Positions 31,704 to 52,116 of a stretch of DNA of 59,653 nt are shown piece after piece (the first letter of the stretch is position 1; each line of letters starts with the position of its first letter). The stretch is from Victivallales bacterium. Its GTDB lineage: Bacteria > Verrucomicrobiota > Lentisphaeria > Oligosphaerales > Oligosphaeraceae. The DNA lies in assembly GCA_017417585.1 (NCBI GenBank), contig JAFPYX010000018.1, positions 1-59,653 on the forward strand, written 5' to 3'. Below the pieces are notes generated by a model that searched no databases, was not told the DNA's origin, and saw only the letters and a list, made by a program, of their open reading frames with translations. The position numbers and the translations under genes are program-made.

Positions 31704-31709
31704 TTTAAG

Positions 31710-37243: not shown

Positions 37244-37253
37244 AGGGATATAC

Positions 37254-37354
37254 CTGAATCCGTGAATTTGCGTAAAGGATGCAGCGGAAGCGCCTCGCCG
37301 ACGGAATATGTTGTGGTGACGCCTCGTCACCACGGTGTTAACTCACGGATTCAG
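37254..37354 (+). repeat. Dispersed hairpin element, copy 1
   Basis: A 101-bp intergenic element. Its ends are inverted repeats, CTGAATCCGTGAATT at the left and AACTCACGGATTCAG at the right. In the centre GTGGTGACG, CCT, CGTCACCAC makes a perfect 9-bp hairpin. About three quarters of its positions match the element at 52018-52116, and a third, decayed copy lies inverted at 31609-31703. It encodes no protein of note and fits a miniature mobile or REP-like element. Confidence 0.85.
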
Positions 37355-37434
37355 GCATTTGATAAATAATCATAAAATCAAGAAGTTATATTGCCGAAGT
37401 GGAATAGTTCTTCTGCATGCTCTACATCAGGCCA

Positions 37435-37481
37435 CCCTCCCGACGGGACCTAACCTAACCGACAGGAGGGTTTGTTTTTCC
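37435..37481 (+). terminator. Terminator facing the ADP-ribosylglycohydrolase gene
   Basis: ACCCTCC (37435-37441) and GGAGGGT (37466-37472) form a 7-bp stem followed by TTGTTTTT. The strand suits transcripts coming from the left. The loop contains two CTAACC units like those of the heptanucleotide arrays. Confidence 0.65.
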
Positions 37482-37486
37482 TCCTA

Positions 37487-38329
37487 TCAGCGGCGAAGTA
37501 CGGCGAGGAAGTCGTCGATCCATTGCCGGACAAGCCGCACCTCATGGATGGCATCCACCCACTCTTGCGGGATGGCATCGTAGCCATAGAAGGCACCGGC
37601 CAGCTGACCATAGACCGCCCCAATGGAGTCGGCATCCCCGCCTAGATTTACCGCCGCCAGCATCCCGTCGCGAAAACTGTCCGTGGTCTGGAATGCCCAG
37701 AGCGCGGCATCAAGCGTGCTCACGCACCAACCGGAGTTGTTCACCTCTTCGCGGCATCCGTATGGCGACTTCTCTGTCGCCCGCACGCCGTTCAAATGTG
37801 CATCGAGTATTCGGGCAAATTTCGCCACTGTCGCCCGCACCGCAGCACTGTCGTGAGTTAAATCGCTGATTTCGTCAAGCACTTCCGGTCGTCCCAGCGC
37901 CATAGCAATAAGATATGATGGTGCCAGCCGCATGATGCTTCCATTCCCCTGTGAACTTTCCAAGCCGTTCTTCAGGCGACCTTGCTTGATTCCATGAATG
38001 GCCGACGAGGTGGCACGACCGATGTCGAAAGCGTAGGCCGTGCTGGAACGGAAACCATTGTCATACCATTTCACGAAGGTATCGGCGATATCCCGGAGGT
38101 CATAGCCCTTTTCTCTGACAAAGCTATCCATTACGCAGAAGGCCATTGAGGAGTCATCCGTCCAATACCCTGGCGGCAAATTGAAAACGGGACACGGCTC
38201 CATCTTTTCGATGTAGGGGTGCTGGTCTTTTTCGGCAAACTGGATGGGCGAGCCGAGGCAGTCACCGACCACCAGTCCCATCAGCATGCCAAGATATCGA
38301 TTGAAGATATCCTTTTTCGCAGAATCCAT
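37487..38329 (-). CDS. ADP-ribosylglycohydrolase family protein
   Basis: A 280-residue all-alpha hydrolase of the ARH/DraG type that removes ADP-ribose from modified molecules using a magnesium pair. The metal and substrate blocks are present: MGLVVGDCLGSPIQFAE, GYWTDDSSMAFCVMDS, SSQGNGSIMRLAPSYLI, THDSAAVRATVAKFARILD and LGGDADSIGAVYGQLAGAFY. No ADP-ribosyltransferase or DarT/DraT partner lies in the window, so the substrate (protein, nucleic acid or free ADP-ribose derivative) is open. It follows the secreted unknown gene by 39 bases on the same strand, but the functional link is not obvious. Confidence 0.93.
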   Translation of the reverse strand: MDSAKKDIFNRYLGMLMGLVVGDCLGSPIQFAEKDQHPYIEKMEPCPVFNLPPGYWTDDSSMAFCVMDSFVREKGYDLRDIADTFVKWYDNGFRSSTAYAFDIGRATSSAIHGIKQGRLKNGLESSQGNGSIMRLAPSYLIAMALGRPEVLDEISDLTHDSAAVRATVAKFARILDAHLNGVRATEKSPYGCREEVNNSGWCVSTLDAALWAFQTTDSFRDGMLAAVNLGGDADSIGAVYGQLAGAFYGYDAIPQEWVDAIHEVRLVRQWIDDFLAVLRR

Positions 38330-38368
38330 GTTTATGGCGTTTCAGGAGTATCAGGAAAACTACTATAA

Positions 38369-39034
38369 CTACTTTACCTGGAAGTCGTAGAAGCAATTGA
38401 CTCCCTCGCAGGCGGTGAGGCCGACGCGATAGGTGCGTGGAAGTGTGGGAAGCATGCAGCCGAAGGTCTGCCCGTCGCAGGAGACGGTAAGCAGCGGCAC
38501 TTTGGCGGTGAAGGCGACCTTGGCCTCCAGGCGGTATTTCACCTGCGAGGAAAAGTCGTGCTTGAACCACGCGGCCAGACGCCAGAAGGGCTTGCCGTCC
38601 CGGAACTCATGGTGCCAGACATTGATGCCGTCGGCATAAAGCACGATCTCCCAGTGTTCCCGGTACTCGGCCATGTCGTCAGCCGAGGGATTCGTGGCAA
38701 GCTCGCCGGCCAGAACGATGCTCGGGGCATAGCGATCCGAAAAAGACATCGTGGACGAGACGGCCGCATCGCCCACCAGCGGCTCCTTCAACAGCATGCT
38801 GACGTATGCCTCATGGCAACTGGCCAGCTGATCCGCCGTAAGCCCATCCGGAACGCGGTTCTCGATGTGGTCGGCGGCCTGGATCCACGCGCCCAATTCG
38901 TCCCAGCGAGGAGTCTTGACCTGGAGCCAGTCGTCGCGCTTCCAGCCATCCGGAGTGAACACACAGGTGTACTCCATGGCGGGAAGCGCCAGAGAAATCA
39001 ATATCAAGTTAATTATAACTAATTGTTTATTCAT
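38369..39034 (-). CDS. Secreted protein of unknown function
   Basis: A 221-residue protein with a short signal-peptide-like N-terminus (MNKQLVIINLILISLALPAM). The rest is soluble, beta-prone and Trp/Tyr-rich (WEIVLYADGINVWHHEFRDG; FKHDFSSQVKYRLEAKVAFT; YRVGLTACEGVNCFYDFQVK). The pattern recalls concanavalin-like or LamG-type sandwich domains, but no family is certain. It begins eight bases after the M28 peptidase stop on the same strand, which implies one operon; both act on, or respond to, extracellular material only if the peptidase is exported, which is not evident. Confidence 0.75.
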   Translation of the reverse strand: MNKQLVIINLILISLALPAMEYTCVFTPDGWKRDDWLQVKTPRWDELGAWIQAADHIENRVPDGLTADQLASCHEAYVSMLLKEPLVGDAAVSSTMSFSDRYAPSIVLAGELATNPSADDMAEYREHWEIVLYADGINVWHHEFRDGKPFWRLAAWFKHDFSSQVKYRLEAKVAFTAKVPLLTVSCDGQTFGCMLPTLPRTYRVGLTACEGVNCFYDFQVK

Positions 39035-39042
39035 ATTATAAT

Positions 39043-39996
39043 TTATAATCGCCCTCTTTCGTCCAATTCCAGGACTGTTGCCAGTACGACTTGTGCGGAG
39101 GCCCGGAGATTCTCCAGGTCCACGCGTTCCGGGATGTCTCCTCGCAGATGGTACTGCGAATCCGCATAGGGGAAGGACCCTTGGTTAACGACGGCGCACC
39201 GGAAGCCCGCGTTGATGAAGCTCCCCTCGTCGTCGGAGATGCCGCCGCTGGCCCCCACAAAGGCCTCGATAGGAATTTTGTACTTATCGGCAAGCGAGAC
39301 GACCAGTTCGGCAAGGGGCTTTCCCTCCGGCGTCGAATAGACGCTCCAGAGCGTCTTTCGCCCGGCTTCCTGGTCGGTGTCGCTTTTGCCGCAGAAGGAG
39401 TCTGAGTTGAGGACGGCGATGATGTCGTCCTTGCGGTTTTTGGCCTCCTGGGCCATCGCCATGGAGTGCCAGGGGAAGTGCTCCTCGTTGCAGAAGAGGA
39501 ATCGCATGGTTCGGCGGTGCGGCATGGCGGCGAGAAGCCTGACAAGTTCCAGGTTCACCACCGTTCCGGTCGCGTTGTCCTGCGCGCCGGCGCTGTTGAT
39601 CCAGCTCTGGGAATCCTTGTGGGCAATCAACTGGATGATTTCGCCAGGGTACTCGTTCCCCTTGAGAGTGACCTCGATGCTCCGCGCCTCGTAGGTGGGG
39701 TCGGTCGTGTAGGGGAACGAATACCACCGATGGATGTCCTTCCGCTCGTTGCAGCGGTATGGCCGTACGCGGTTTGGAATCGCCCGCGGCGCGGTGCCGA
39801 GCGCTCGCAGGCGTTCCATTAGGAAATCGTCGGTCTCGTCCAGCGAATTCTTGGTATGCCAAGGCGCGGTGTAGGAGACCGTGCGAAAGCTGAATGGGTC
39901 GCGGCAGAGGTGGAAGAGGTCGCTCCGGAGCTTCTCCAGGCTGACTTGGTTGAGCATTTCGGCAATCATGTTTTGTTGAATGGGGTTACTGGTCAT
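39043..39996 (-). CDS. M28 family metallopeptidase
   Basis: A 317-residue zinc aminopeptidase-like protein without an export signal. The co-catalytic metal ligands are visible in order: His in IIQLIAHKDSQSW, bridging Asp in SAGAQDNATGTVVNLELV, the Glu pair in MRFLFCNEEHFPWHS, Asp in VLNSDSFCGKSD, and His in DSQYHLRGDIPERVD. The first ligand segment reads AHKDS where many relatives have HYDS, a mild variation. The substrate is unknown. It sits between rsmD (52 bases upstream) and the secreted unknown protein, all on the minus strand. Confidence 0.9.
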   Translation of the reverse strand: MTSNPIQQNMIAEMLNQVSLEKLRSDLFHLCRDPFSFRTVSYTAPWHTKNSLDETDDFLMERLRALGTAPRAIPNRVRPYRCNERKDIHRWYSFPYTTDPTYEARSIEVTLKGNEYPGEIIQLIAHKDSQSWINSAGAQDNATGTVVNLELVRLLAAMPHRRTMRFLFCNEEHFPWHSMAMAQEAKNRKDDIIAVLNSDSFCGKSDTDQEAGRKTLWSVYSTPEGKPLAELVVSLADKYKIPIEAFVGASGGISDDEGSFINAGFRCAVVNQGSFPYADSQYHLRGDIPERVDLENLRASAQVVLATVLELDERGRL

Positions 39997-40048
39997 CCAG
40001 CCTTAGGCTTTAAGCTCAATTAGGCGTCAGCATGGGGAAGATAGCTTT

Positions 40049-40672
40049 TTAGACAAACTCCTCTGTTTCCATGACGGCGGGATTATCGCTTCGCTTGGCA
40101 AAGGAGACAGAGCGGATGCCGAAGGAGCGCTTGCGCAGGAGGCGCCAAGGCGAGCGCGGACTCCATGGGAGGTCCAGCGTGTCGGTGGAATGCTCCAGGG
40201 CGAGCAACGTCCGGTCACCGCAGAAATTCATCCACCTTTCGTCCAGCAGGAGTTCTCGCCCGCCATACTCTCCATCTGCGGGATGGTACGGCGGGTCGGC
40301 GAGGATGAAGTCAAATTTGACCGACGGGAGCTGTTCCGGGACACGTGCGACCTCGGCGACCAGCAACAGTGCCTCGCCAGGCAGTCGCCCCCTCGCCTGG
40401 ATAGCTTGTCGCACCGCCGCAAGATTCCTCCGAATGACTTCCGCATGCCGCGCGTCGCGCTCGACCATCGTCACGCGTGCGGCTCCGCGGGAAAGCGCCT
40501 CCAGCCCCAACGCCCCGGTGCCGGAGAAGAGATCCAGCACGGCGGTGTCGGTAAAATCCCCCAGGGTCGAGAACAGCGACTCTTTGACTCGGTCCTCGGT
40601 CGGACGAATATCCTCGCCCTCTTCCGGCACGGTCAGCCGAATCCCCCGGGCATCTCCTGAAACAATCCGCAT
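40049..40672 (-). CDS. rsmD: 16S rRNA (guanine(966)-N2)-methyltransferase
   Basis: Rossmann-fold methyltransferase that makes m2G966 in 16S rRNA during 30S assembly. The 207-residue protein starts MRIVSGDARGIRLTVP, typical of RsmD, then RPTEDRVKESLFSTLGDF, the S-adenosylmethionine-binding VLDLFSGTGALGLEALSRGA, and the catalytic FDFILADPPYHPADGEYG. The NPPY-type motif is DPPY, as usual in RsmD. Length is normal. It is 34 bases after a small zinc-ribbon gene. rsmD is often next to coaD; that gene is not present here. Confidence 0.95.
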   Translation of the reverse strand: MRIVSGDARGIRLTVPEEGEDIRPTEDRVKESLFSTLGDFTDTAVLDLFSGTGALGLEALSRGAARVTMVERDARHAEVIRRNLAAVRQAIQARGRLPGEALLLVAEVARVPEQLPSVKFDFILADPPYHPADGEYGGRELLLDERWMNFCGDRTLLALEHSTDTLDLPWSPRSPWRLLRKRSFGIRSVSFAKRSDNPAVMETEEFV

Positions 40673-40706
40673 GATTCGGAATTCCCTTAAAACAGCCCTG
40701 CAAGAA

Positions 40707-40985
40707 CTACTGCTTCAGATTCCTGGCACGCCGCTTCACGGTTTCATGGACACCGGTATAGGGCATACGGAAGTTGGCCGCCCGGGCACCGCAGACGGGG
40801 CAGTGGCGGTCGGTCTGCTGGCGTTCCAGCAAAAAGACATGTTCGCACTTGGGGCATCGAAGCAGTCGCGACTTGGAGAGTTCCCACTGGTGGTTTCCAT
40901 ACCAGAGCATGTTCCACACCAGCACGGAAAACCCCAGTCCCACCAGGAGAATCGTGCAGAAAACCAGGCTATCGACAAGCAACAT
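40707..40985 (-). CDS. Small membrane protein with zinc ribbon
   Basis: A 92-residue protein with one N-terminal membrane helix (LVDSLVFCTILLVGLGFSVLV) and a C-terminal zinc ribbon, CPKCEHVF then HCPVCGARAANF, giving two CPxC knuckles. The tail is basic (HETVKRRARNLKQ). Such single-pass zinc-ribbon proteins are common, usually without assigned function. It lies between the TonB-like gene and rsmD on the same strand and is probably cotranscribed with both. Confidence 0.8.
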   Translation of the reverse strand: MLLVDSLVFCTILLVGLGFSVLVWNMLWYGNHQWELSKSRLLRCPKCEHVFLLERQQTDRHCPVCGARAANFRMPYTGVHETVKRRARNLKQ

Positions 40986-41054
40986 GGAAGAAAAGTCTAG
41001 ACAAAATGATTTATTCCTGCAGGGCGAAATGCCTTCCGGAGAGAGACGGTTCGC

Positions 41055-42158
41055 CTACCAGCAGCTCCAGTCCACGGAAAGAAAATGGCTTCCGGGTTTC
41101 GCGGTCTGCACCGCCGTCGAACGACGCCCCAGCAACACTCGCAAAGCCTCAATTGCCGCCTGGTCTAAACGGCCATCACCGCAACTCCGGCGAAGCACGA
41201 CGCGTGGCACCACAAGAGGTGCTTCCAAGCTGTCAGAACTCGTCGCCGTCACGCGTGGCAACTTGACCCCCGGCGGAATCTGGAGTTCCAGTAGTGTCCG
41301 ACCAATCGTGCCGTCTGCGGCATCTCGCATGCGTTCCCCAAGCCGTTTTCGCGTCTCGGGGGCCCGCCAATAGTTCAGTGCCTCCGCACTCAAGACAGGC
41401 GCTTCGTCCTCGGCGATTGGCAAGCCATCGGAAAACTGCCAGACCGGCCGATGAACGCTTGGTTTCAGCTTCAACGGGATGGCATTCTGCATCAGAGAAT
41501 TCTGCCTTTGCCACAGTAGATTGACCTGCTCGTTGGCCAGTGTCTTGGGAGACTGCGGGGAAATCAAGGCAAAAAGTTCATGATAAAGAGGCTGCCTGGC
41601 CGTCTTGGAAGACTGATATTTGGGAAACCCCTCGGCGGCATACTGTGGCTGAAACTGGTTGAACCGAGAAAACCCCGCGCGCCAATCCGGCAACAGGCAT
41701 TGCCGGGGGTCGGCCAGGCGCACCCAGTTATACCACGACAAGTTTTTTCCGGATGCTACAGCCTCCTCATACTCCGGCAACGAATAAACCCAAGAATGAT
41801 CCAGCTCCTCGGAGGTGACAATAACTCCCGCATTCGTCTTACGATAGAAGAATGGGAGCAGCATAAGCGCACACAATGGAGGCAAAATGCAAATCAATAC
41901 CGCCGCAGACAAAAAACGGCGTAGCAATTCTCCCCGGGGCCTGGCAACCTCCGAAACATTCAGGACATGCCATTCTGAGTCGCCGCCGGCCGGCACATGC
42001 TCCTCTTTCGTCAACGGCACGTCGGGAAGCGCCGACACTTTCCCCTGTCCATCGCGCGTCCCGCCCGGCGCCTGGGGGCGGCTAACTTCCACCGGAGATT
42101 TGGGAGGACGGCCAGCTGCCGTACTAGTCGATTTTGTTTTCGATTTTCGGCGTGACAT
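41055..42158 (-). CDS. TonB-like energy-transducer protein
   Basis: A 367-residue protein with an unusual layout. A Pro/Lys-rich cytoplasmic segment of about 75 residues precedes the single membrane helix (FLSAAVLICILPPLCALMLL). The periplasmic part ends in a TonB-C-type domain: RVVLRRSCGDGRLDQAAIEA and LSVDWSCW, matching the SSG-x-LDxAA pattern and terminal strand of TonB. The central 150 residues are unrecognised. It is encoded directly after exbB and exbD, overlapping exbD by 35 bases, so it is probably their partner. TonB proteins normally begin with the membrane helix; the long cytoplasmic arm is atypical. Confidence 0.75.
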   Translation of the reverse strand: MSRRKSKTKSTSTAAGRPPKSPVEVSRPQAPGGTRDGQGKVSALPDVPLTKEEHVPAGGDSEWHVLNVSEVARPRGELLRRFLSAAVLICILPPLCALMLLPFFYRKTNAGVIVTSEELDHSWVYSLPEYEEAVASGKNLSWYNWVRLADPRQCLLPDWRAGFSRFNQFQPQYAAEGFPKYQSSKTARQPLYHELFALISPQSPKTLANEQVNLLWQRQNSLMQNAIPLKLKPSVHRPVWQFSDGLPIAEDEAPVLSAEALNYWRAPETRKRLGERMRDAADGTIGRTLLELQIPPGVKLPRVTATSSDSLEAPLVVPRVVLRRSCGDGRLDQAAIEALRVLLGRRSTAVQTAKPGSHFLSVDWSCW

Positions 42159-42654
42159 TGACCGCAGGGGCTTCAGACTGTGGCTGAGTCGCCAGGTAAA
42201 TATCCAGACCTAGTTCACGGGCACTTTGAGCCAGCTCCAGCCAAGTCTGCAAGGAAATATTCCGGTCGGCGCATACGACAATCAAATCCCGCCGAGGCGA
42301 AAGCTCATTCTCCGCCATGCCCCCCCCCTCCGCGTTATTGCCGACGTGGGCGCTGAGCTCCTGACGAAAACTATTCCAATTGTTGCCTTGCGACAACTCC
42401 TCTTGGGTTGCCGTAAAACGCTTCCCGTTGAAGAACAATTCCGAATCGCTGGTAACGGTCACAATCAGCTTCTTCGCATGGGTATGCATGGGAATCTGCT
42501 CCATCTTCGGAAGCTGAACTGTCGTTCCAGGCATTGACACCTGAGTACTGCTGAGATAGAAAATCAGCAGTAGCACCAAGATGACGGCCACCAGTCCGAC
42601 CTGCATCGGAAAGGCATTCGGCTCATAATTGACATTGGAGCGCCAGACAAACAA
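42124..42654 (-). CDS. exbD: ExbD/TolR family protein lacking the conserved membrane aspartate
   Basis: A 176-residue ExbD/TolR-type protein: one membrane helix (MQVGLVAVILVLLLIFYLSS), then STQVSMPGTTVQLPKM and a periplasmic alpha/beta domain (KLIVTVTSDSELFFNGKRFT; RRDLIVVCADRNISLQTWLE). In ExbD, TolR and MotB a helix Asp carries protons. Aligning VILVLLLIF with the corresponding ExbD helix puts Ala (or Val) at that position, and no acidic residue lies in the helix. The only start giving an N-terminal tail is TTG at 42654, without a clear Shine-Dalgarno, so the start is uncertain. A nine-G tract in the coding strand (near 42320-42328) encodes EGGGM. Confidence 0.85.
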   Translation of the reverse strand: MFVWRSNVNYEPNAFPMQVGLVAVILVLLLIFYLSSTQVSMPGTTVQLPKMEQIPMHTHAKKLIVTVTSDSELFFNGKRFTATQEELSQGNNWNSFRQELSAHVGNNAEGGGMAENELSPRRDLIVVCADRNISLQTWLELAQSARELGLDIYLATQPQSEAPAVNVTPKIENKID

Positions 42655-42730
42655 TTTTCAATTTACAATGATTTGGAAGCGGTGGACGGCATGTAATTCA
42701 GGCCTTCTCCGCGCAGGCGAAAGAAGGAGG

Positions 42731-43387
42731 CTACGGCTCGCCAGTCGAATCGCCGGGAGGCGGATTCCGCGTGAGGAAGAAGGTGATTTCAGCCGCTCCC
42801 TTGCTCATTTCGTGGAGCAGCCGGTCAAGCATGCAGGAGAGTACGCCATGGAAGAGCTGGCATACCAGCGCCACCAGCAAACCCAGGGCAGTGCAGACCA
42901 GGTAGGAGGATATGCTCTGCCCAAGCTCCTTCGCCCCCGCGAATTCGTTGCCGGAGATGGTCATGAATGTGCTCACCAGCCCAATCACCGTCCCCAGCAA
43001 CCCCAGAATGGACGAGCAGTTCGCCAGCATCGCCAGCAGCTTCAGCCCCGACTGCAGGCGCTGCAGCAGTATCTGGGCCATTTCCTCAATTGCGTAGCGG
43101 ATGCCGATTTCGCCATCCTGCCAATGCTCGATCGCCGTCCGGAAAATCTCTCCGACGGGTCCAGAGCGCGTGTCACAATTGGTAATCGCCTCTTTGACGC
43201 GGTGGTTGCGGAGCTGGTTCGTAAGACCCCGCAACAACTCCATGGTGTCCACCTGGGCACGCCGATAATAAAGCACCCGCTCAAAGAAGATGAACAACCC
43301 CGTCAGCAGAAAAATACCCAGCACGATGAGCAGCGGGGCGCTTCCGGGAGTAAAGAGCAACTTGGAAAGGTCCTGAAAGTTCGACAT
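42731..43387 (-). CDS. exbB: ExbB/TolQ/MotA family proton-channel protein
   Basis: A 218-residue three-helix inner-membrane protein. N-terminal helix LLIVLGIFLLTGLFIFFERV, a cytoplasmic loop with EEMAQILLQRLQSGLKLLAM, then the channel helices LGLLGTVIGLVSTFMTISGN and SSYLVCTALGLLVALVCQLF. The two conserved Thr are kept (LLGTV and CTALGL), but the Glu that precedes the second Thr in ExbB appears as Ser. The start at 43387 has AGGAG six bases upstream. ExbD follows after 76 bases. It should form the ExbB5-ExbD2-type motor with exbD; energy source is discussed in the findings. Confidence 0.9.
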   Translation of the reverse strand: MSNFQDLSKLLFTPGSAPLLIVLGIFLLTGLFIFFERVLYYRRAQVDTMELLRGLTNQLRNHRVKEAITNCDTRSGPVGEIFRTAIEHWQDGEIGIRYAIEEMAQILLQRLQSGLKLLAMLANCSSILGLLGTVIGLVSTFMTISGNEFAGAKELGQSISSYLVCTALGLLVALVCQLFHGVLSCMLDRLLHEMSKGAAEITFFLTRNPPPGDSTGEP

Positions 43388-43418
43388 CACGAACTCCTAA
43401 GTAAACCCTGTGTGCCAG

Positions 43419-45083
43419 TTATTTGACCTTCGGCGCCTCGATTTCTTCGGCACGCGGGATGAAACGCTCCACGGGGACGTTTTGGAAGCGCGCCAGATTG
43501 TCCGCCAGCTTCATCGTCACTTCATTCTCCCTCAGGCCTCGCTCCACCGTTCCGAGCATCACGCGGCGCATCTCCTCGAAGGGCGGCATTCCTCGGCGCA
43601 GCGCAGTGTCGCCGATGAACTTCATGTAGTGGTCGTAAAGTTGCTTTGCGGTTAGGGTGAGGGATTCGTATGACTTGTACTCGTCCGACTCCTCGTCCGT
43701 GGCATACGCCAGGTAAGTGTAGGCCTGCAAGAGATAACTCTGGATGCCCTTCTGCGCCTGCTGCTGGCTGGCCTCACGCATGTCCTCCGCCAGCTCCTTG
43801 GTCACGAACTCCTCCAGGTCGGAATCCGGCGGGAACCGGGTCGGATTGAACTCCTTGGCCCACTTGAACCAGCGGGCCGCCTTCTTCTTGTAGCCGAAGA
43901 TGTAGAGCTGGACAATCCCGTCCACCAGGAAATTCGAGTATGGGCCGATAATCTGCGAGTCCGGATAGTCCCGTATCGCCTGGCGGTAATAGGCGTCGGC
44001 CGCATCGGCGACCGCGAAATTCGGGGTCATCTGAAGCGTGCGGATATCGCCCTTGAGATAGAGCAGCTTGCCGGTCTGGAAAGCCGCATTGAGCGACTGG
44101 AAGATCATGCGGTCGCAGGAGAGGCGCTTGAAGATTTGGCTCTCCTCGAAGTACTCGCGGCGGCCGCGTTCCGCCCAGTAGATGGCATGGGCCTCCGGAA
44201 GACGCCAGTCCAAATCGCCATACTTTTCGTTGCACTCCATCATGATGACGGGGTCCAGCCGGTATTTGTAGAGCATCCAGCGGTGGCGCATGCACAGTTC
44301 AACTGTCTCCGTGATGCCCAGTTCGTCAAAGGCGGCGCGCAAGTTGAACCCGTTGTACTCCTCGGGGATGACTGCACGTTCTCGGAAGACTATCTCGAAC
44401 TTGTTGAAGTCCAGACCATTCGTGGCCAGAATCTGCCGGAATGCCTCGGCCTTGTCATCCAAGGTGGCATAGAGCTTGGTCTCGTTGAGCGGCGCCTTGT
44501 CGAGCTTCTCCCATTCGGCATTGTAGTCGGCGAAGAGCCGGATCATCTCCTGGGCAAACTGGGTACGGTAGTAGCGGTTCGCGTCGTCCATGTCCTTGCC
44601 CATCTTGTGTTCGTAGATCCAGCCCAGCTGGCGGTATAGTTCCGGGTCGCCGGGGTTGTATTCCATCGCCTCGTCGCGGATCAGCTCAATGCCGCGCTTC
44701 ACCCAGCGCCAGCGGTCTTCGAAACTCGTGAAGGTGACCGAAATGTTATAGGCCATGTTCCAGCCCAGGAAGGCATGCGCGCCGGTATAGCGGGGCTGGA
44801 GCTTCACAATCCAGTCCGCCAGCTGCACCATCTCATAGTACTTCCCCTCGTCTTGCATGCGGTTCACCCGCAACCAAAGGAAGTCCGCCAGCAAGCCGCG
44901 GAAACCGCCCAAGGCAACGCTGGAGAAGGCAACCACCGGCGGCGCGTTTTCCAAAGGCTTGGTGTCCGTCAGGTGGTATTCCGAACGGACGGCGTTCATG
45001 CGCCCCTGCAAATACGAAAGGCAGCACAACAAGGCCACCATGACGCCGAGGATGACGAGGATGCGTGAGAAATTGCTTTTCAT
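43419..45083 (-). CDS. Membrane-anchored helical repeat protein next to ABC permease
   Basis: A 554-residue protein with one N-terminal membrane helix (ILVILGVMVALLCCLSYLQG), then a long alpha-helical region in which LADFLWLRVNRMQDEGKYYE, ADWIVKLQPRYTGAHAFLGW and MEYNPGDPELYRQLGWIYEH look like TPR-type repeats. Aromatic residues are abundant. No catalytic motif is seen. I cannot name a family. It is encoded 60 bases after an ABC permease on the same strand, suggesting a periplasmic partner of that transporter, and 31 bases before exbB, so the whole block could be one transcript. Confidence 0.8.
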   Translation of the reverse strand: MKSNFSRILVILGVMVALLCCLSYLQGRMNAVRSEYHLTDTKPLENAPPVVAFSSVALGGFRGLLADFLWLRVNRMQDEGKYYEMVQLADWIVKLQPRYTGAHAFLGWNMAYNISVTFTSFEDRWRWVKRGIELIRDEAMEYNPGDPELYRQLGWIYEHKMGKDMDDANRYYRTQFAQEMIRLFADYNAEWEKLDKAPLNETKLYATLDDKAEAFRQILATNGLDFNKFEIVFRERAVIPEEYNGFNLRAAFDELGITETVELCMRHRWMLYKYRLDPVIMMECNEKYGDLDWRLPEAHAIYWAERGRREYFEESQIFKRLSCDRMIFQSLNAAFQTGKLLYLKGDIRTLQMTPNFAVADAADAYYRQAIRDYPDSQIIGPYSNFLVDGIVQLYIFGYKKKAARWFKWAKEFNPTRFPPDSDLEEFVTKELAEDMREASQQQAQKGIQSYLLQAYTYLAYATDEESDEYKSYESLTLTAKQLYDHYMKFIGDTALRRGMPPFEEMRRVMLGTVERGLRENEVTMKLADNLARFQNVPVERFIPRAEEIEAPKVK

Positions 45084-45143: not shown

Positions 45144-46712
45144 CTACGCCTTCCGTACCACGAGACCCAGTTCACGACGCTTCAGGATGTAGATGCCGAC
45201 ACCGGCAAGGATTCCCGTGCGCAGAATCAGCACGCGGATGAAGGTCCAGACGATGTCGTCTGTCTCGACCAGGCGCCCGTTGGCCAGGTCGCTCGTGCAG
45301 TCCAGTTCATCCAGAGTGACCACGCACCACTGGACTCCCTGTGCGACATGGTGCAGGATGCGCTCGCCGGCATTCTTGTACATGTAGGAGCCATCGTCGT
45401 TCTTCAGCGGCGCATCCACCGCGGCGGAGGCGGACATGCCGATGATCAAATAGGAGATGGCCACGAAAACCGCCACCGGCGTGGAGAAGACCGCTCCGAC
45501 CGTGCATCCCAGCGCGGCCATGAACGCCAGTTGAATCAACGCCATCGCCATCGTCCGCATGAAGTTGCTGAAGAACCCTGTTACCCTGGAAAGCAGCATC
45601 GGCCCGTCGGCGACCTGGAAAATCGCCGTGTAGGTCTGCTTCATTTTGCGGTAGGCCGCCTGGCTCTCCTCGTCCGCCGGGACATCAGCCTCGTTCGGCA
45701 GGAACAGGTTGCCGAAATTGTGGAAATAAAGCACCACGCGGTCGTCGTCGGCTTCGTTGACCAGCATGCTGGAAACCACCGGGATGTTGACGACGGTATA
45801 ATTCTCGTCCTCCTTGCGGATGGTGGTGAGTTCCTGCCAGGTGCCGCCAGGCATTTGGAATGGCTCCCCTTGCACATCCATATATGTGACGACCGCCTCC
45901 TCCGCATTGGCCGGCAGAGGATTCCCGTCGGCATCCCTGAAGATCTGGAAGCCCCAGTCCACCGGAATCATCCGCTGGTCCGTGTCTGTGATGTCCCCGG
46001 AGTAAAGACGGAAACGCAGGTAGAGCACCGGGTCGTTTTTGGCCAGCCGAACATTTTCAAAATGCCAGACATGCGTCTTGCCCGGCTCGATGGTGACATT
46101 CTTCATGACCTCCTGCATGAGTTCGCTCCGGATCATCTTCTTGACAATCTTCGGATCGTCCTCCGGGTTTACGGTGCCGTTCTTCACACGCTTCTGGTAT
46201 TCACGCTCCACGTCGTCATACAGGTAAACCCGGGCGGGGAAGAAGCTCCGGCGGCCCACCAGCGTCTCCTGCCGAAGCTTATCCATGTCCTGTTCGGTGA
46301 AGAGTCCTGAACGCTGCCCGGCGCCAAGGCGGTAAAATGTAAGGGCGTAGATGATGAACATGGAGATGACCAACAGCAACGCATGCATCAGGAAGACGCC
46401 CAGCGTCTTTCCGGCCCACACCACACAGCGCCGGCAGGGCTTGGAAACCACCAGGTGAATCTGGTAGCCCTCAATCTCCGTGGCCAGCTGGGAACACCCC
46501 AGCCACAAGGTCGAAGCCGACACCAGCGCGATGACGATGTTCAGGGAGTATGTCAGGGACACCTGCACCAGCCCGGATGCGGTATTGTCACCCTTGATGG
46601 TCAACGGGAGGCCAATGACACAGAGCAAAATCAACGCGAACAGGACATGGAAGACCTTGGAGCGCATCGCGGACCGGATGGTCTGCTTGAAGATAGCCAA
46701 GAACGATTTCAC
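45144..46712 (-). CDS. ABC-2 type transporter permease with large extracytoplasmic domain
   Basis: An approximately 522-residue permease of the ABC-2/NosY-like type. The N-terminal helices (VFHVLFALILLCVIGLPLTI; LVQVSLTYSLNIVIALVSAS; LLLVISMFIIYALTFYRLG) are followed by a 240-residue soluble insertion (about 150-390), then more helices (MAMALIQLAFMAALGCTVGA; PVAVFVAISYLIIGMSASAA) and a last helix near the C-terminus. The start is taken at GTG 46712, which begins the family-like VKSFLAIFKQTIRSAMRSKV; a TTG further upstream is possible. No ATP-binding subunit is present in the window, so the ATPase must be elsewhere. The large insertion may contact the helical repeat protein encoded next. Confidence 0.82.
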   Translation of the reverse strand: MKSFLAIFKQTIRSAMRSKVFHVLFALILLCVIGLPLTIKGDNTASGLVQVSLTYSLNIVIALVSASTLWLGCSQLATEIEGYQIHLVVSKPCRRCVVWAGKTLGVFLMHALLLVISMFIIYALTFYRLGAGQRSGLFTEQDMDKLRQETLVGRRSFFPARVYLYDDVEREYQKRVKNGTVNPEDDPKIVKKMIRSELMQEVMKNVTIEPGKTHVWHFENVRLAKNDPVLYLRFRLYSGDITDTDQRMIPVDWGFQIFRDADGNPLPANAEEAVVTYMDVQGEPFQMPGGTWQELTTIRKEDENYTVVNIPVVSSMLVNEADDDRVVLYFHNFGNLFLPNEADVPADEESQAAYRKMKQTYTAIFQVADGPMLLSRVTGFFSNFMRTMAMALIQLAFMAALGCTVGAVFSTPVAVFVAISYLIIGMSASAAVDAPLKNDDGSYMYKNAGERILHHVAQGVQWCVVTLDELDCTSDLANGRLVETDDIVWTFIRVLILRTGILAGVGIYILKRRELGLVVRKA

Positions 46713-46782
46713 GGTGTGGTCTCGAAAATAGTGGAAGTGAAATGGAAAGGGCAAGGACCCGCCCGGACGGCAGGCAAAAAAC

Positions 46783-47346
46783 TCAGCGCCGGAGTTGCAT
46801 CCCTTCGGCCAGCGAGCCGGCCATGGCCCCCAGCCCGATGAAGCGCAGGATCTCCAGCGAAAAATCCACGGCGGCGCCCGGGCCGCAGGCCGTCAGCACG
46901 GAACCGCTCTTCTGGATGAACTTCCCCGTGTAGTTGCCGGCCTTGATGTGGCGTTCGAAGCCAGGATAGCAGGTGTATTCCACGCCATCCAGCAGCCCCG
47001 CCGCGTCCAGCGCAATCGGCGCCGCGCAGATTGCGCAGACCGTCCCCGCCGCACGGATTGTCCGGACGGCCTCCAGAACGGCCGCCGAGGCGGCCAGGTT
47101 CGTCGCCCCGGGCATGCCTCCGGGCAAGTATGCCAGCTGGAAATCCGCCGGCACGAGTTCTTCGATGCGGACATCGCCCTGGACACGAACGCCATGTGCG
47201 CCCGGCACCATCAGCGAGGAGTCCCCGGAAGGCAACACCGCGCACAGGACAACGTTCAAACCCGCCCGGCGAAAGACGTCCGCCGGTGCCAGGGCCTCAA
47301 GCTCCTCGAAGCCCGGAGCCAGAAAAATCACTGCGTTCCGTGTCAT
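46783..47346 (-). CDS. DJ-1/PfpI family protein
   Basis: A 187-residue protein of the DJ-1/ThiJ/PfpI superfamily. Acidic residue in FLAPGFEELEALAPADVFRR and the nucleophile elbow in VCAICAAPIALDAAGLLDG (Cys followed by Ala-Ala-Pro) match the DJ-1 subgroup, as does YLPGGMPGATNLAASAAVLE. The family contains glyoxalases/deglycases and redox sensors; which applies is unknown. The gene is the first of the long minus-strand run, 70 bases before the ABC permease start. Confidence 0.92.
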   Translation of the reverse strand: MTRNAVIFLAPGFEELEALAPADVFRRAGLNVVLCAVLPSGDSSLMVPGAHGVRVQGDVRIEELVPADFQLAYLPGGMPGATNLAASAAVLEAVRTIRAAGTVCAICAAPIALDAAGLLDGVEYTCYPGFERHIKAGNYTGKFIQKSGSVLTACGPGAAVDFSLEILRFIGLGAMAGSLAEGMQLRR

Positions 47347-47488
47347 TTAGGTTTGGGTTAGAGGGCTATATTTAGTCCGTTGACCAAAAAAAGCCGGCCT
47401 CGGTGCGTTCCGGGCGCCCGCAAAAGAATGCTCGCAGTCAGTAAATATATCACTCTTTTTAAAAAAAGGTGGTAATTGCAGGAAAACG

Positions 47489-48910
47489 ATGATGGGAATT
47501 TCTTTGGATTCTTCACATTACATCAGCACCCGGGGGGGAATCGCCCCTGTGGATTTCGCCGATGCGGTCATGATGGGGCTGGCCACCGACGGCGGCCTGC
47601 TGGTCCCCGGAAGCTTTCCCCAAGTGGACGCCTCGACATTGGACGGCTGGCGAAGGCTCACCTATCCGGAACTGGCCTTCGAGGTCATGCGCCCCTTTGT
47701 CGGCGACTCGCTCCCCGCCGAGACGCTCCGACGGCTGGTCCAGGACAGCTATGCGACTTTCGACACCCCCGACGTGGTGCCGATCCGTCCGCTGGACAAC
47801 AAGAGCCTCTTCATCGCAGAACTCTACCATGGACCGACCTTGGCCTTCAAGGATGTCGCCCTGCAGTTCCTCGGGAACCTCTTCGCTGAGCTTCTCCGGC
47901 AGCGCGGCGGACGCCTGAACATCCTCGGAGCGACCTCCGGCGACACCGGCTCCGCCGCCATCCACGGCGTGCGCGGCAAGGCCGGCATCGAGATCTTCAT
48001 CCTCTACCCGGAAGGCCGCGTCAGCCCGCTCCAGGAGCGGCAGATGGCCACGGTGCCGGACGCCAATGTCCACTGCATCGCCATCGAAGGCACCTTCGAC
48101 GACGGGCAGCGCGTGATGAAGCAGGTCTTCAACGACCTGCCCTTCAAGGAGAAGAACCACCTTGGCGCGGTGAACTCGGTGAACTGGGCGCGCATCCTGG
48201 CGCAGGTGGTGTATTACTTCTGGGGCGCCTTCCGCGTGCAGGAGCTCTCCGGCTCAGCCACGCCCATCCAGGTCTGCGTCCCCACCGGAAACTTCGGGGA
48301 CATCTTCGCGGGATATGTCGCCCGCCGGATGGGCGCTCCAATCGCAAGGCTGCTCCTGGCCACCAACGAGAACGACATCCTCTCCCGGTTCTTCAACACC
48401 GGCACCTACGCCAAAGGCACCGTCCACCCCACTCTCTCTCCCTCGATGGACATCCAGGTCGCCAGCAACTTCGAGCGGTATCTCTACTACCGCCTGGGCG
48501 AGGACGCGGCACGAACCAAGGCCATGATGATGGAATTCGAGCAGAACGGCTCCATCACCCTGGAAGACGCGGATCCGACTTTCGCGGCCGGCCGCGGCGA
48601 CACCGCGAGCACCCTGGCCACCATCCGAAAGCATTATGAGCAGTACGGCGTGCTCCTGGACCCCCATGGGGCCGTCGGCGTCACCGTGGCCGAGGCGAAT
48701 CCCCTGCCCGGCCTCAAGACGCTCTGCCTGGAGACCGCCCACCCCGGCAAATTCCCCGCCGCCGTGGAACAGGCGCTGGGGGACGGCACGCCCGCCCGGC
48801 ACGAGTCGCTGGAGAAGCTCAAGAAACTCCCCTTGCGCAAGGCGCTGCTTCAGCCGACCGTCCCCGTGATTGAGGAATATATCATCCAGACGCTAGCCGG
48901 GAAAGCATGA
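47489..48910 (+). CDS. thrC: Threonine synthase
   Basis: PLP enzyme that converts O-phosphohomoserine to threonine. The 473-residue protein is of the longer, yeast/E. coli-like type: YISTRGGIAPVDFADAVMMG at the N-terminus, GPTLAFKDVALQFLGNLFAE with the PLP Lys at residue 121, ILGATSGDTGSAAIHGVRGK binding the cofactor phosphate, and SVNWARILAQVVYYFWG. The ATG at 47489 has AGGA six bases upstream, and a second ATG follows immediately. With metX at 24.2 kb it shares the homoserine branch, though the genes are apart. Its stop overlaps the rarA start (ATGA). A seven-G run at 47532-47538 lies in the first codons. Confidence 0.96.
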   Translation: MMGISLDSSHYISTRGGIAPVDFADAVMMGLATDGGLLVPGSFPQVDASTLDGWRRLTYPELAFEVMRPFVGDSLPAETLRRLVQDSYATFDTPDVVPIRPLDNKSLFIAELYHGPTLAFKDVALQFLGNLFAELLRQRGGRLNILGATSGDTGSAAIHGVRGKAGIEIFILYPEGRVSPLQERQMATVPDANVHCIAIEGTFDDGQRVMKQVFNDLPFKEKNHLGAVNSVNWARILAQVVYYFWGAFRVQELSGSATPIQVCVPTGNFGDIFAGYVARRMGAPIARLLLATNENDILSRFFNTGTYAKGTVHPTLSPSMDIQVASNFERYLYYRLGEDAARTKAMMMEFEQNGSITLEDADPTFAAGRGDTASTLATIRKHYEQYGVLLDPHGAVGVTVAEANPLPGLKTLCLETAHPGKFPAAVEQALGDGTPARHESLEKLKKLPLRKALLQPTVPVIEEYIIQTLAGKA

Positions 48911-51129
48911 AGTCCACCAATCCTCCATCGTTGTTTGAGCACGCGCGGCAGGAGCGTCTCCGCAAGGAGTCTCCGCTGGCCGCGCGGATGCGCCCGCGCA
49001 CGCTGGAGGAATACATCGGTCAGAAGCATATCCTTGCGCCAGGGCGGCTCCTTCGACGCGCCATCCAGGCCGACCAGCTCGCCTCGCTCATCTTCTACGG
49101 CCCCCCCGGCACTGGGAAGACCACGCTCGCCAGCGTGATAGCGAACACCACGAAATCCGCCTTCGTGACTCTGAATGCGGTGATGGCGGGCATCGCGGAT
49201 CTCAAGGCCGTCACCGCCGAGGCGCAGCGCCGCTTGGGTGAATATGGCCAGCGCACCATCCTTTTCATCGACGAGGTCCATCGCTGGAACAAGGCGCAGC
49301 AGGATGCGCTGCTGCCGTGGGTCGAGAATGGCACGGTCATCCTCATTGGAGCCACCACTGAGAACCCCTACTTCACCGTCAACCGCGCGCTGGTCTCCCG
49401 CAGCCGCATCTTCCAGCTCAAGCCGCTCACCGACGAGGACATCCGCCAAGTCATCCGCCAGGCCATCGAAGATCCCGCCCGCGGCTTCGGAAAACTCCAT
49501 ATCCGTTTGGATGACGAGGCGCTAGCGCATCTGGCCAACGTCGCCAACGGCGACGCCCGCGCCGCGCTGAACGCGCTGGAACTGGCCGTCGAGACCACTG
49601 CGCCCGACGAGGACGGCGCCATCCACCTCACGCTGTCGGTCGCGGAGGAGTCCATCCAGCACCGTGCGGTACTCTACGACCGCGAGGGCGACTACCACTT
49701 CGACACCATCTCCGCCTTCATCAAGTCGATGCGCGGCTCCGACCCCGACGCAGTATTCTACTGGCTGGCCAAGATGGTCTATGCCGGCGAGGACCCGCGC
49801 TTCATCTTCCGGCGCATGATCATCTTCGCATCGGAGGACATCGGCATGGCCGACCCGCATGCCGTGCCATTCGTCACCGCCTGTGCCGAAGCCTTCGACC
49901 GCGTCGGCCTCCCCGAGGGGCACTTCCCCCTCGCCCATGCCGCGCTCTACTGCGCCACCGCCCCCAAGTCCAACTCGGTGCTGGGATTCTTCGACGCGCT
50001 CAAGTTGGTCGAGAAGGAACGCGAAGGCGAGGTCCCCAATCACCTGCGGGACGCATCGCGGGACAAGGAGGGCTTCGGCCACGGCGTGGGCTACCAGTAC
50101 CCCCACGACTACCGCGAACATTGGGTCGCCCAGCAGTATCTTCCGTCTTCCCTTCAGGGACGCATCTTCTACGAACCCGGCGAACTCGGCTACGAGGCAC
50201 AGCTGGCATCCCAGATCCGCGAACGTCGCGAACTCCAGCTGGCCGCACTCCGCGAAAACGAGTCCGCGCTCTCGCCACCCGAAATCCTCAGCTTCTCACC
50301 CGCCGACCGAACCACCGAACAGTGGCTCGCACGCGCCGTGGACTCGCTCTCCGGTACCCTCGCCCAGATCCGCACGGAGCTCTTCCGAACGCGAACGCTC
50401 CAGCGCCACGAGCTGGTTCTCGACCTCACCGCCGACACCGGACTCTTCACTTGGGAGGCCGTGCGCCAGACGCCAGAGGGCGGTATCTGGGCGCTCGTGC
50501 GCTCCGAGCAGGCCGCGCAGGTCCTCCGCGAACAGGCCGCGAACCTCCCGGGACTCCGTCAGCCGCAGATTCTTGTCGGTTCCCCCGAAGAACTCCCCGC
50601 GCTACTCGCTGATACGCCAGATTTGCGCTTCGATTTTATTATTGGACGCAACTTGTTTATTAACAACGATTTATATAATAACTATATACATTTGTTCCAA
50701 ACTCTGCTGGCACCAGGCGGAACGCTCGCCTTCGCCGAGAACCTCCCGCGACATGGACAGCGCCTCTCCCGACTCGTCGAGACTCCCCTGCCACCCGAAA
50801 TCGCCGAGGCCGAGGAGAAAATCTATACGAATCCCGACGATCCGCTGGTCAACTGGGATGCCTCAGACCTGTGCCGCCTCCTGCAGGAGGCGGGCCTTGC
50901 CACCGCAAATCCAACAATATTGGATTTGCACCGCACGCAGGTGCTCCCCCTTGCCACTCTGAACCGCTGGATGGACACTTCAGATGCAAACAGCTATGCC
51001 TCGCGGCTGCTCGCTACGGGACTCAAGCCAGAATATCTCGCCCAGCTCGCCGCCGCACTGCGCCCGCTGGCAAACCGCTCCGTCGCCTTCGCCAGCCAGA
51101 CCGCCATCCTCAGTGCGACGAACCAATAG
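48907..51129 (+). CDS. rarA: RarA/MgsA AAA ATPase with C-terminal methyltransferase-like domain
   Basis: Replication-associated recombination protein; clamp-loader-like ATPase acting at stalled forks. Residues about 1-430 are Rar[21 protein letters not shown], Walker [14 protein letters not shown] (Lys 71), Walker [21 protein letters not shown], sensor 1 [20 protein letters not shown], then the tetramerisation part ([48 protein letters not shown]) and [16 protein letters not shown]. Usual RarA stops near 440; here some 300 residues follow. Within them [20 protein letters not shown] and [14 protein letters not shown] resemble a Rossmann methyltransferase fold, lacking a clear GxGxG. Similar fusions are annotated in cyanobacteria. 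Translationally coupled to thrC. Confidence 0.92.
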
Positions 51130-51333
51130 CACTTTATGGCTAGAGATGTCGTCTATGGCAAACCCGTTGCCTGTCTTCCTACTGGCCGGCCAATTCACGC
51201 AGAACCAACTCAAGCTTGACATGCAATGGATCGTAAAGCAGTCTTTGTCGGTATTTCGTGATTAAAAAACGGTAGAGAGATTTTTCTGCAGAGTGCGTTA
51301 TATTTCCCCCCAACGGCTAAGTTGTTGTCCTAA
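51130..51333. other. Intergenic region after rarA
   Basis: No gene is supported here. A short frame from about 51148 reads LPVFLLAGQFTQNQLKLDMQ, faintly like the nucleophile region of sialate esterases, but stops after 39 codons. The right end leads into a promoter. Confidence 0.4.
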
Positions 51334-51362
51334 TTGTATCTGCTTTGGCGAGCTGATATAAT
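51334..51362 (+). promoter_or_regulatory. Sigma-70-type promoter of the lipoprotein gene
   Basis: TTGTAT (51334-51339), a 17-base spacer and a consensus TATAAT (51357-51362) lie 55 bases before the lipoprotein start codon. An AGAGAAAACCAG stretch just before the ATG is a weak ribosome-binding region. Confidence 0.7.
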
Positions 51363-51416
51363 GTGCTATTCCTGGTAGTTCTGTTTAACTCTCAAACATC
51401 AAAAAGAGAAAACCAG

Positions 51417-51904
51417 ATGAAAAAAGCCTTTCTCTGCTTGGCACCGGCTATCCTGTTGGCATCATCCCTCATCCTGACAAGCTGTGGTTCCAACTCGTCT
51501 GCAAGCAACGAAGAATCTGCCATCTCACCTGCGGGCGTTACTATGAAATCCGATTCACCTTTGAGCGTTGCAAAAGCATTTATGGATGCTCTCTCCAACT
51601 TTGAATTAGACAAAGCGTCAGAATGTTTAACAGGTGACGCGAATGCGGTGTTTGAACGCGAACTATTTGAAAAATACACCAAAGCCTCTGAGGAAGAAAA
51701 GGAAAAACTGAGGGCGAGGAGTAAGTTACGGAATATGACTATAGCCTGGGGGGAGAAACGATTGACGGTGACACGGCTACTGTTAAGTTCACACGTGAAA
51801 GGAAGAGTGACAATAGCGACGAGACATACGGGCTGAAGGAAAGAGAATGGATGTTTGTCAAGATCGATGGCAAGTGGAAGATAGTGTCCCCTCCGCAGTT
51901 GTGA
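51417..51904 (+). pseudogene. Lipoprotein gene with a frameshift at a G-run (DUF4878-like)
   Basis: The first frame starts MKKAFLCLAPAILLASSLI with lipobox LTSC (Cys 23), then PLSVAKAFMDALSNFELDKA and a helical region, and stops at 51836 with an unrelated ending. The minus-one frame entered at the six-G run (51748-51753) continues as GDTATVKFTRERKS, then EREWMFVKIDGKWKIVSPPQ and stops at 51904. That is the expected last strand and DGKWKIV ending of DUF4878/NTF2-like lipoproteins. One base lost from a seven-G run, a sequencing error, or programmed minus-one slippage would explain it. Intact length would be about 162 residues. An outer- or inner-membrane lipoprotein of unknown function is inferred. 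Confidence 0.75.
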
Positions 51905-51955
51905 AATCGTTCTGGTGAAAACAAGAATTGCGGAAAGAGGAAGAATGCCCCGCAG

Positions 51956-51986
51956 GGAGGATGCCGACGACAGACCGCCGTCGGCA
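51956..51986. repeat. Inverted repeat after lipoprotein gene
   Basis: TGCCGACG and CGTCGGCA pair over 8 bp with a 9-base loop, about 60 bases after the lipoprotein stop. There is no T-run directly behind it. It could be a 3' end hairpin. Confidence 0.45.
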
Positions 51987-52017
51987 CCGCCGTTTCGCGT
52001 CAATAATAACTTTGATT

Positions 52018-52116
52018 CTGAATCCGTGAATTTGTGTAAAGCATATGGCGGCGGTCCTCGTTGACGGACTGCGTTTTGGTGACGCTTGTCACCACAGGGT
52101 TAAATTCACGGATTCA
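52018..52116 (+). repeat. Dispersed hairpin element, copy 2
   Basis: A 99-bp element in the same orientation as copy 1. The ends read CTGAATCCGTGAATTTG and TTAAATTCACGGATTCA. The central hairpin is TGGTGAC, GCTT, GTCACCA. Between the ends it shares TGTAAAG, CCTCG, GACGGA and GGTGACG blocks with copy 1 in the same order. It lies between a lipoprotein gene and a convergent gene, outside any coding sequence. Confidence 0.85.

What the first reader, a model, noticed from the sequence alone, without database searches (positions are those of the whole stretch)
37254..52116. A dispersed ~100-bp element with inverted termini and central hairpin, three copies in 60 kb
Seen: 37254-37354 and 52018-52116 share inverted ends (CTGAATCCGTGAATT / CACGGATTCA) and a central hairpin (GTGGTGACG-CCT-CGTCACCAC in copy 1), with roughly three quarters identity. 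A third, decayed copy is inverted at 31609-31703. All are intergenic. The stem differs in detail but pairing is kept in copy 2, which suggests selection on structure. Known classes that could fit are MITEs and REP/REPIN elements. Inference: a mobile or regulatory repeat family spread over this genome.
Basis: partly seen in the sequence, partly recalled or inferred. Interest (0 to 1): 0.7.

Follow-up and report, generated by a model that had tools for sequence, protein, structure and literature searches.

The report
Hairpin-carrying mini-transposon with IS1380 ends
The repeats in this window belong to a family of about 35 short DNA elements in this bacterium's genome that share the ends and the 5-base footprint of IS1380-type jumping genes, so they were likely spread by such a jumping gene's enzyme; this is a new member of a known kind of element, with inner hairpins that look borrowed from another repeat.

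Summary
The copies at 37253-37355 and 52017-52118 (79% identical) and a decayed one at 31613-31717 belong to a ~103-bp family with 35 end-to-end model matches at E<=1e-5 in the own genome; two of three other same-genus genomes carry it. Of 81 copies from three genomes, 26 are flanked by a perfect 5-bp direct repeat against 0.58 expected, with no comparable signal at other lengths: the footprint of transposition. Intact IS1380-family insertion sequences in the same class carry the same 14-bp terminus CCTGAATCCGTGAA, with 5-bp duplications. These are therefore MITEs of IS1380 type. No IS1380 transposase was found in the four same-genus drafts, so the mobilising enzyme is inferred. The window's own copies show no duplication. 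Hairpin pairing is kept through double changes between subfamilies. Similar hairpin modules occur without the termini as short tandem arrays across the bacterial family, and elements carry one to at least four hairpins; this modular cargo is the unusual part. RAYT/REP ancestry was tested and not supported.

The parts
37253..37355 (+). MITE copy 1 (subfamily A, 103 bp), between a + strand ORF ending at 37085 and an ADP-ribosylglycohydrolase ORF on the - strand (37487-38329)
   Evidence: Genome BLAST and covariance model R1 (E=4.9e-25); neighbours
37253..37270 (+). left terminal inverted repeat CCTGAATCCGTGAATTTG
   Evidence: sequence; first 14 bases match termini of IS1380 elements
37285..37303 (+). 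first internal hairpin; left arm decayed in this copy (CGGAAGCG-CCT-CGCCGACG)
   Evidence: alignment A2 and consensus fold
   Evidence: sequence; covarying helix 3
37338..37355 (+). right terminal inverted repeat TTAACTCACGGATTCAGG
   Evidence: sequence
52017..52118 (+). MITE copy 2, older copy (~79% identical to copy 1), just beyond the 3' end of the - strand ORF 52146-54059; upstream on the + strand are ORF 48907-51129 (MgsA-type AAA domains) and a 157-aa ORF 51363-51836 without a Pfam match
   Evidence: (E=2.0e-15)
52074..52097 (+). second internal hairpin of copy 2
   Evidence: sequence; alignment A2
31613..31717 (-). decayed and chimeric copy 3: right terminus and both hairpins recognisable, left terminus replaced by AATGAGG-like sequence; lies between a DEAD-box helicase ORF (29927-31555) and an ORF that can start at 31709 (the model match overlaps that start by 9 bases)
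   Evidence: (E=1.5e-9)

Best explanation
The repeats belong to a family of ~103-bp non-autonomous elements (MITEs) that has the 14-bp ends and the 5-bp target duplications of IS1380-family insertion sequences, and they were likely moved in trans by an IS1380 transposase. Shown: termini CCTGAATCCGTGAATT in inverted orientation; 5-bp direct repeats around 26 of 81 copies; elements too short to encode a transposase; intact IS1380 elements of the same class with the same 14-bp end and 5-bp duplications; subfamilies with more similar copies keep the duplication far more often than the more diverged one. Inferred: a transposase encoded elsewhere in the cell (or formerly present) binds the termini and inserts the element at a 5-bp staggered, mostly A+T-rich site. 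Also inferred: the interior is a cargo of one to at least four palindromic hairpin modules of a wider, terminus-free tandem-hairpin repeat family, gained or swapped by recombination.
For: Copy number and anatomy. TSD: 5-bp agreement 0.612 against 0.321 in re-dealt pairs, 26 of 81 perfect against 0.58 expected (maximum 4 in 500 shuffles); no comparable signal at lengths 2-4 or 7-11 (length 6: 3 perfect against 0.10 expected). Age gradient, subfamilies assigned by a stem motif in my script: perfect TSD in 17 of 31 B, 3 of 4 C, 6 of 37 A; mean identity B in G001 0.933, C 0.968, A 0.838 and 0.862, B in G000 0.864 with five copies. Autonomous relatives in the same class: L206 (1668 bp, 14 of 14 at both ends, TSD TTAAT), L214 (1683 bp, 14 and 13 of 14, TSD ATTCA), L207 (1744 bp, 14 of 14 at both ends, one end identical to the MITE over 17 bases, no TSD); their transposases score 315-352 bits against the NCBIfam IS1380 model, cut-off 180. 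Among named genomes I checked the ends of 25 of 80 loci, chosen by hand: 13 have both ends within 2 mismatches of CCTGAATCCGTGAA, 6 of those 13 with identical 5-bp flanks; three of the 13 have the sizes of L206, L214 and L207 and are probably the same elements. Of 20 family loci fetched because they hold the terminus, 16 also share end sequence with the IS1380 remnant L158. A published IS1380 member, IS1247, is listed with a 5-bp direct repeat (PMC3281130, table passage).
Against: No IS1380 transposase in the four same-genus genomes (PF13701 at E<=1e-5; protein query), so the mobiliser in this genus is not seen; these are drafts, 85-95% complete. The three window copies show no 5-bp duplication, and 55 of the 81 tested copies have no perfect one. 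MITE and IS share only the terminal 14-17 bases, so the MITE is not a simple internal-deletion derivative. No clean empty site: at copy 1, G003 lacks the element and a 25-bp match to the left flank stops 1-2 bp before the element, but about 1 kb to the right is missing there too. The terminus is found in 23 of 29 family genomes with up to 1 mismatch, yet 11 of those 23 have only 1-3 hits while the reversed control gives up to 2, so only the richer genomes are informative.
Confidence: 0.9

Rival explanations
1. The elements are REP/REPIN-type palindromes moved by a RAYT (Y1) transposase.
For: Internal modules carry GTAG before the stem (recalled as a REP trait) and occur as short head-to-tail arrays without termini. 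Y1 transposase genes are present in 21 of 29 family genomes.
Against: REPs are not expected to have 16-18 bp terminal inverted repeats or 5-bp target duplications (recalled), and both are present here. None of the 30 Y1 loci scanned (of 51 listed places, about 1.5 kb each side where the contig allows, perfect stems of 8 bp or more only) is bracketed by this module; where hairpins flank them they differ, for example CCCCGCCCTTCAGGGCGGGG.
Confidence: 0.04
2. The repeats are a structured RNA or regulatory/terminator element family kept by selection on the fold, with spread secondary.
For: Stable fold of one full copy (z -7.0 as RNA). Double changes keep pairs: 132 cells against 54.7 shuffled and at most 17 when slid. 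The two better window copies lie just beyond the 3' ends of - strand ORFs.
Against: A few pairing switches separate whole subfamilies (for example CG:47 against GC:39), which module exchange would also give; the number of pairs with any double change (10 against 7.8 shuffled) is unexceptional, and the alignment was fitted to the structure. Copies are dispersed, carry TSDs and vary in hairpin number. No Rfam family reached its threshold at the copies.
Confidence: 0.06
3. The element is mobilised by another transposase family that also makes 5-bp duplications (for example Tn3- or IS1634-type; recalled).
For: No IS1380 gene is seen in the same genus.
Against: The terminus matches intact IS1380 elements in the same class over 14 bases and IS1380 elements of other phyla nearly as well. 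Only IS1380, Y1 and the IS1380 protein fragment were searched, so other transposases in this genus were not excluded.
Confidence: 0.05

Closest known systems
IS1380-family insertion sequences (e.g. IS1247; here L206, L207, L214)
   Same: 14-bp terminus CCTGAATCCGTGAA in three intact elements of the same class (one base off at one end of L214), inverted orientation, 5-bp target duplication in two of the three
   Different: no transposase gene; similarity stops after 14-17 bases; interior is hairpin modules
Bacterial MITEs in general (e.g. MITEPye1 of Paracoccus yeei, which its authors link to IS1182-family elements; PMC11578231 passages)
   Same: short, non-coding, TIRs, direct repeats, foldable
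   Different: different IS family; here the interior is modular with a variable number of hairpins and paired differences between subfamilies
Modular intergenic repeats such as pneumococcal BOX or enterobacterial ERIC (recalled)
   Same: short, intergenic, foldable, modular or hairpin-rich
   Different: here a transposon family with matching termini is identified and target duplications are shown; no sequence relationship was tested

Membership tests
MITE | terminal inverted repeats at both ends | tested here: met
   91.8% of terminal-helix cells paired in 91 copies
MITE | short, no transposase gene, multi-copy | tested here: met
   ~103 bp, 35 end-to-end matches at E<=1e-5 in 3.26 Mb
MITE | target site duplication | tested here: met
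   26 of 81 perfect 5-bp repeats, 0.58 expected; absent at the three window copies
MITE | termini shared with an autonomous element | tested here: met
   L206, L207, L214 and 13 of 25 inspected loci; not found within the same genus
MITE | mobility demonstrated | not testable with these tools
   needs an assay; the absence of copy 1 at the related G003 site is only suggestive
IS1380 family (as mobiliser) | transposase passes the IS1380 model | tested here: met
   315-352 bits, cut-off 180, for the three intact elements, none of them in this genus
IS1380 family (as mobiliser) | target duplication of about 5 bp | tested here: met
   TTAAT and ATTCA (2 of 3); 6 of 13 loci; IS1247 5 bp
IS1380 family (as mobiliser) | transposase gene present in the host genome or genus | tested here: not met
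   no hit in 4 draft genomes; incomplete assemblies leave this open
REP/REPIN with RAYT | palindromes bracket a RAYT gene in the genome | tested here: not met
   30 of 51 listed Y1 places from the family scanned; none bracketed by this module
Rfam structured RNA | match to a curated family | tested here: not met
   only RNase P in the window at gathering thresholds

The most novel reading that the evidence does not exclude
IS1380 ends have captured pre-existing REP-like palindromic modules and turned them into a modular transposon: the hairpins are exchangeable cassettes (one to at least four per element, hybrid A/B copies present) that hitchhike on the IS1380 transposase, and whose fold is retained because it aids mobility or shields neighbouring genes.
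Probability: 0.3. Interest if true: 0.55.

Novelty: new member of a known kind. Interest (0 to 1): 0.35.

Why it matters
It resolves an unexplained dispersed repeat in an uncultured genus (class Lentisphaeria, by inference) as a MITE family with an identified parent transposon family, and gives an end signature (CCTGAATCCGTGAA plus 5-bp duplication) for annotating IS1380 elements and their MITEs in this class and beyond. The hairpin cargo offers a case for testing whether MITE interiors can be assembled from other repeat families.

Tried and rejected
RAYT/REP origin: 30 of 51 listed Y1 transposase places from the family were scanned for the module and none was bracketed by it. L226 contains the module pair only because a MITE copy lies about 1.2 kb away.

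An autonomous partner beside the copy C35:14443-14545: the lone terminus at C35:16234 is a solitary right end, and the ORF between does not look like a transposase by reading; no family search was run on it.

The IS1380-like genes L155/L175, L156/L176 and L157/L177 show no such terminus within 2 mismatches in the DNA held; the L175 frame runs to the contig end. Of the seven class loci tested de novo, L204 and L205 have a one-mismatch end on one side only, and L208 and L209 one end with 1-2 mismatches.

The matches in G013 (another genus) were dropped: their 400-bp flanks are 100% identical to G000 contigs C74 and C30, which points to cross-binning, or very recent transfer. Those G000 contigs may therefore not belong to this organism.

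Clean empty site: attempted for copies 1 and 2. Copy 1 gave only a one-sided match in G003; copy 2 gave no intergenic homology.

Literature, open-licence library only: IS1380 with MITE and miniature inverted-repeat (6 papers), IS1380 with non-autonomous, 'IS1380 family' with MITEs, the terminus string (one unrelated paper), Lentisphaerae with miniature inverted-repeat (one paper, listing only), Lentisphaer with repetitive extragenic palindrom (none), and IS1380 family with repeat and duplication terms (36 papers, 12 listed). I read listings for these, and 'find' passages of PMC3542288, PMC9208149, PMC3281130, PMC4133298 and PMC11578231; no whole paper. None of those passages describes an IS1380-derived MITE. 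ISfinder was not available.
Full report
Check of the observation. The copies are real. BLAST of copy 1 against the own genome (G000, 3.26 Mb, 103 contigs, 95.2% complete, 8.5% contamination) gave 70 matches at E<=10, many of them short or terminus-only. A covariance model built from 23 G000 copies gave 63 matches at E<=1. Of these, 36 are at E<=1e-5; 35 span the model end to end and one (C7:15633-15696) covers the interior only. The weaker ones include opposite-strand duplicates of the same copies. The 23 model copies match by construction. The terminus 15-mer with up to 2 mismatches occurs 71 times against 1 for the reversed control.

Anatomy. The majority consensus is CCTGAATCCGTGAATTTGCGTAAAGGATGTAGCGTCGGCGCCTCGCCGACGGAATGTGTTGTGGTGACGCCCCGTCACCACGGTGTTAACTCACGGATTCAGG: an 18-bp imperfect terminal repeat and two internal hairpins. 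Copy 1 hides the first hairpin because its left arm has decayed. One full copy (L002) folds far better than its shuffles as DNA and as RNA (z -7.65 and -6.97). There are at least three subfamilies by the second stem: A (GTGGTGACG), B (GTGCTGGCG) and C (TGCAGACGC, four copies in G003), visible and counted by motif, where 10 of 83 copies stayed unassigned.

Pairing. On 91 copies from G000, G001 and G003 (84 loci searched, E<=1e-8), 92.4% of cells pair. Double changes number 132 cells against 54.7 +/- 14.8 in shuffles and at most 17 when slid. The pairs responsible are CG:47/GC:39/UA:1, GC:42/AU:36, UA:72/AU:4 and UA:46/CG:43. The alignment was fitted to this structure and leans towards it. The number of pairs with any double change (10 against 7.8; 97 of 500 shuffles reach it) is not exceptional, so a few subfamily-level switches carry the signal; the 23-copy alignment behaves alike (15 cells against 5.1, 5 pairs against 4.1). 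One pair of the first stem (columns 39-92) is unpaired in 44 of 91. I read this as palindromic modules being kept or swapped, with selection possible but not shown.

Footprint. For 83 copies of the three genomes I had DNA around the element; the 81 with at least 20 bp on each side were tested (33 G000, 37 G001, 11 G003). Left out: 11 of the 22 G003 matches (not fetched), the contig-end match G001:C53, the compound at G000 C95, interior-only and weaker matches, and G004, G013 and G043. At length 5 the flanks agree at 0.612 of positions against 0.321 when re-dealt between copies; 26 are perfect against 0.58 expected (maximum 4 in 500 shuffles). Lengths 2-4 and 7-11 show no comparable excess; length 6 has 3 perfect against 0.10 expected. 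By genome: 6 of 33, 16 of 37 and 4 of 11 perfect. By subfamily: 17 of 31 B, 3 of 4 C, 6 of 37 A. Mean pairwise identity: B in G001 0.933 (23 copies), C 0.968 (4), A 0.838 in G000 (19) and 0.862 in G001 (14), B in G000 0.864 (5). Groups of more similar, presumably younger, copies keep the scar. The three window copies have none visible. Flanks are A+T-rich: 43% G+C over 40 bp each side, against 59% for the window.

Distribution. Of 98 genomes searched with stricter filters (own included), 13 have a match at E<=1e-3. The carriers are G000, G001 (40 matches, with only 40 candidates scored) and G003 (22, opposite-strand duplicates and interior-only matches included). G002, the fourth genus member, has none there, but does hold one ~100-bp stretch bounded by near-matching termini with a different interior (L178). 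The G013 full copy is identical over 400 bp on both sides to G000 contig C74 and is treated as cross-binning. The other matches that I displayed (G004, G008, G015, G018, G026, G027 (4 of its 7), G028, G043) are different hairpins, mostly arrays. G093 has a different 74-bp element with the same terminus and an AGATA duplication.

Parent family. A PF13701 search of 29 family genomes hit 3, two of them over the cut-off and none in the genus. One hit, in G007, was an IS1380 remnant with near-matching termini on both sides. CCTGARTCCGTGAARY with up to 1 mismatch is found in 23 of 29 family genomes; 12 of the 29 have four or more hits, the reversed control at most 2 in any genome, and G009 has fewer hits (1) than control (2). 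Of 20 such loci fetched, 16 share further end sequence with the remnant. A 105-aa piece of the remnant found relatives in 11 of 197 class genomes. Of seven class loci tested de novo, three are complete elements: L206 (1668 bp), L214 (1683 bp) and L207 (1744 bp), with 14-bp ends CCTGAATCCGTGAA (13 of 14 at one end of L214), two with 5-bp duplications. Their transposases (446, 442 and 457 aa) pass the IS1380 model. A scan of named genomes kept 80 loci. I inspected the ends of 25, chosen by hand: 13 have both ends within 2 mismatches, 6 of those with identical 5-bp flanks, in records titled Lentisphaeria, Victivallaceae, Kiritimatiellae, Verrucomicrobia, Puniceicoccaceae, Spirochaetes or Spirochaetia, Alicyclobacillus and Ferroacidibacillus; three of the 13 have the sizes of L206, L214 and L207 and are probably the same elements. 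L275 (Victivallaceae) encodes a product 100% identical to the L206 transposase, which places the window's class as Lentisphaeria by inference. IS1247, an IS1380 member, is listed with a 5-bp direct repeat (PMC3281130).

Interior. Similar hairpin modules, with a linker such as GGAATGATGTTG, occur without termini as tandem arrays at C30 (4918-5040 and 33850-33949; C30 may be cross-binned) and C7 (15633-15696). Related arrays lie in other genera in which I saw no full element (L095, L097-L101, L104, L106, L107, L110, L113). Elements with three hairpins (G001:C104, G001:C348), one (G003:C59:8571) and, by reading, at least four (the compound G000:C95:66515-66784) exist, as do A/B hybrids such as G001:C315:26101 (by reading). 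Arrays are more widespread than the MITE, so capture by IS1380 ends is the more likely direction; this is inference. A strict stem counter found two hairpins in 45 of 83 copies, three in 2 and fewer in 36; mutations in the stems account for at least some of the losses, copy 1 among them.

Verdict. IS1380-type MITE family, confidence 0.9. New member of a known kind; the modular hairpin cargo is the part worth following.

Noticed in passing
window 18617-18709, 34466-34502, 35824-35860, 7592-7660: Short tandem repeats of 7-bp units (CTCTAAC/CTTTAAC-like and GTGAGAG) in several places; AATGAGG-like 7-bp repeats also lie by copy 3 and by hairpin modules at C7 and C78.
   Followed up: no
window 45-407: Bacterial class A RNase P RNA (207 bits).
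   Followed up: no
L283-L350 (58 of the 80 loci are from WLWN01000001.1): A Kiritimatiellae MAG (isolate MH-Pat) holds 58 of the 80 IS1380-relative loci returned, many matching only part of the query: a large IS1380 expansion in one genome.
   Followed up: partly
L095, L097-L101, L104, L106, L107, L110, L113: Tandem arrays of ~30-bp GC-rich hairpins (e.g. GTAACGACGGCGTCCCGCCGTCG), several starting at or just after what reads as a stop codon, across genera of this family; a separate repeat family with no mobiliser identified.
   Followed up: partly
L091 versus L077; L105 versus L052: Contigs in two genomes of different genera are 100% identical over the stretches compared (400 bp each side): likely cross-binning in the assemblies.
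   Followed up: partly
L096 1501-1574: A different 74-bp MITE-like element with the terminus CCTGAATCCGTGAAA and an AGATA duplication in another family of the class.
   Followed up: no
L178 1020-1120: In G002, a ~100-bp stretch bounded by CCTGAATCCATGAATT and its near-inverse with an interior unlike the MITE's.
   Followed up: no
L158 2108-2153, L185 2856-2903 and similar: The right end of these IS1380 remnants is a ~48-bp palindrome made of the terminus and a near-inverse copy.
   Followed up: no
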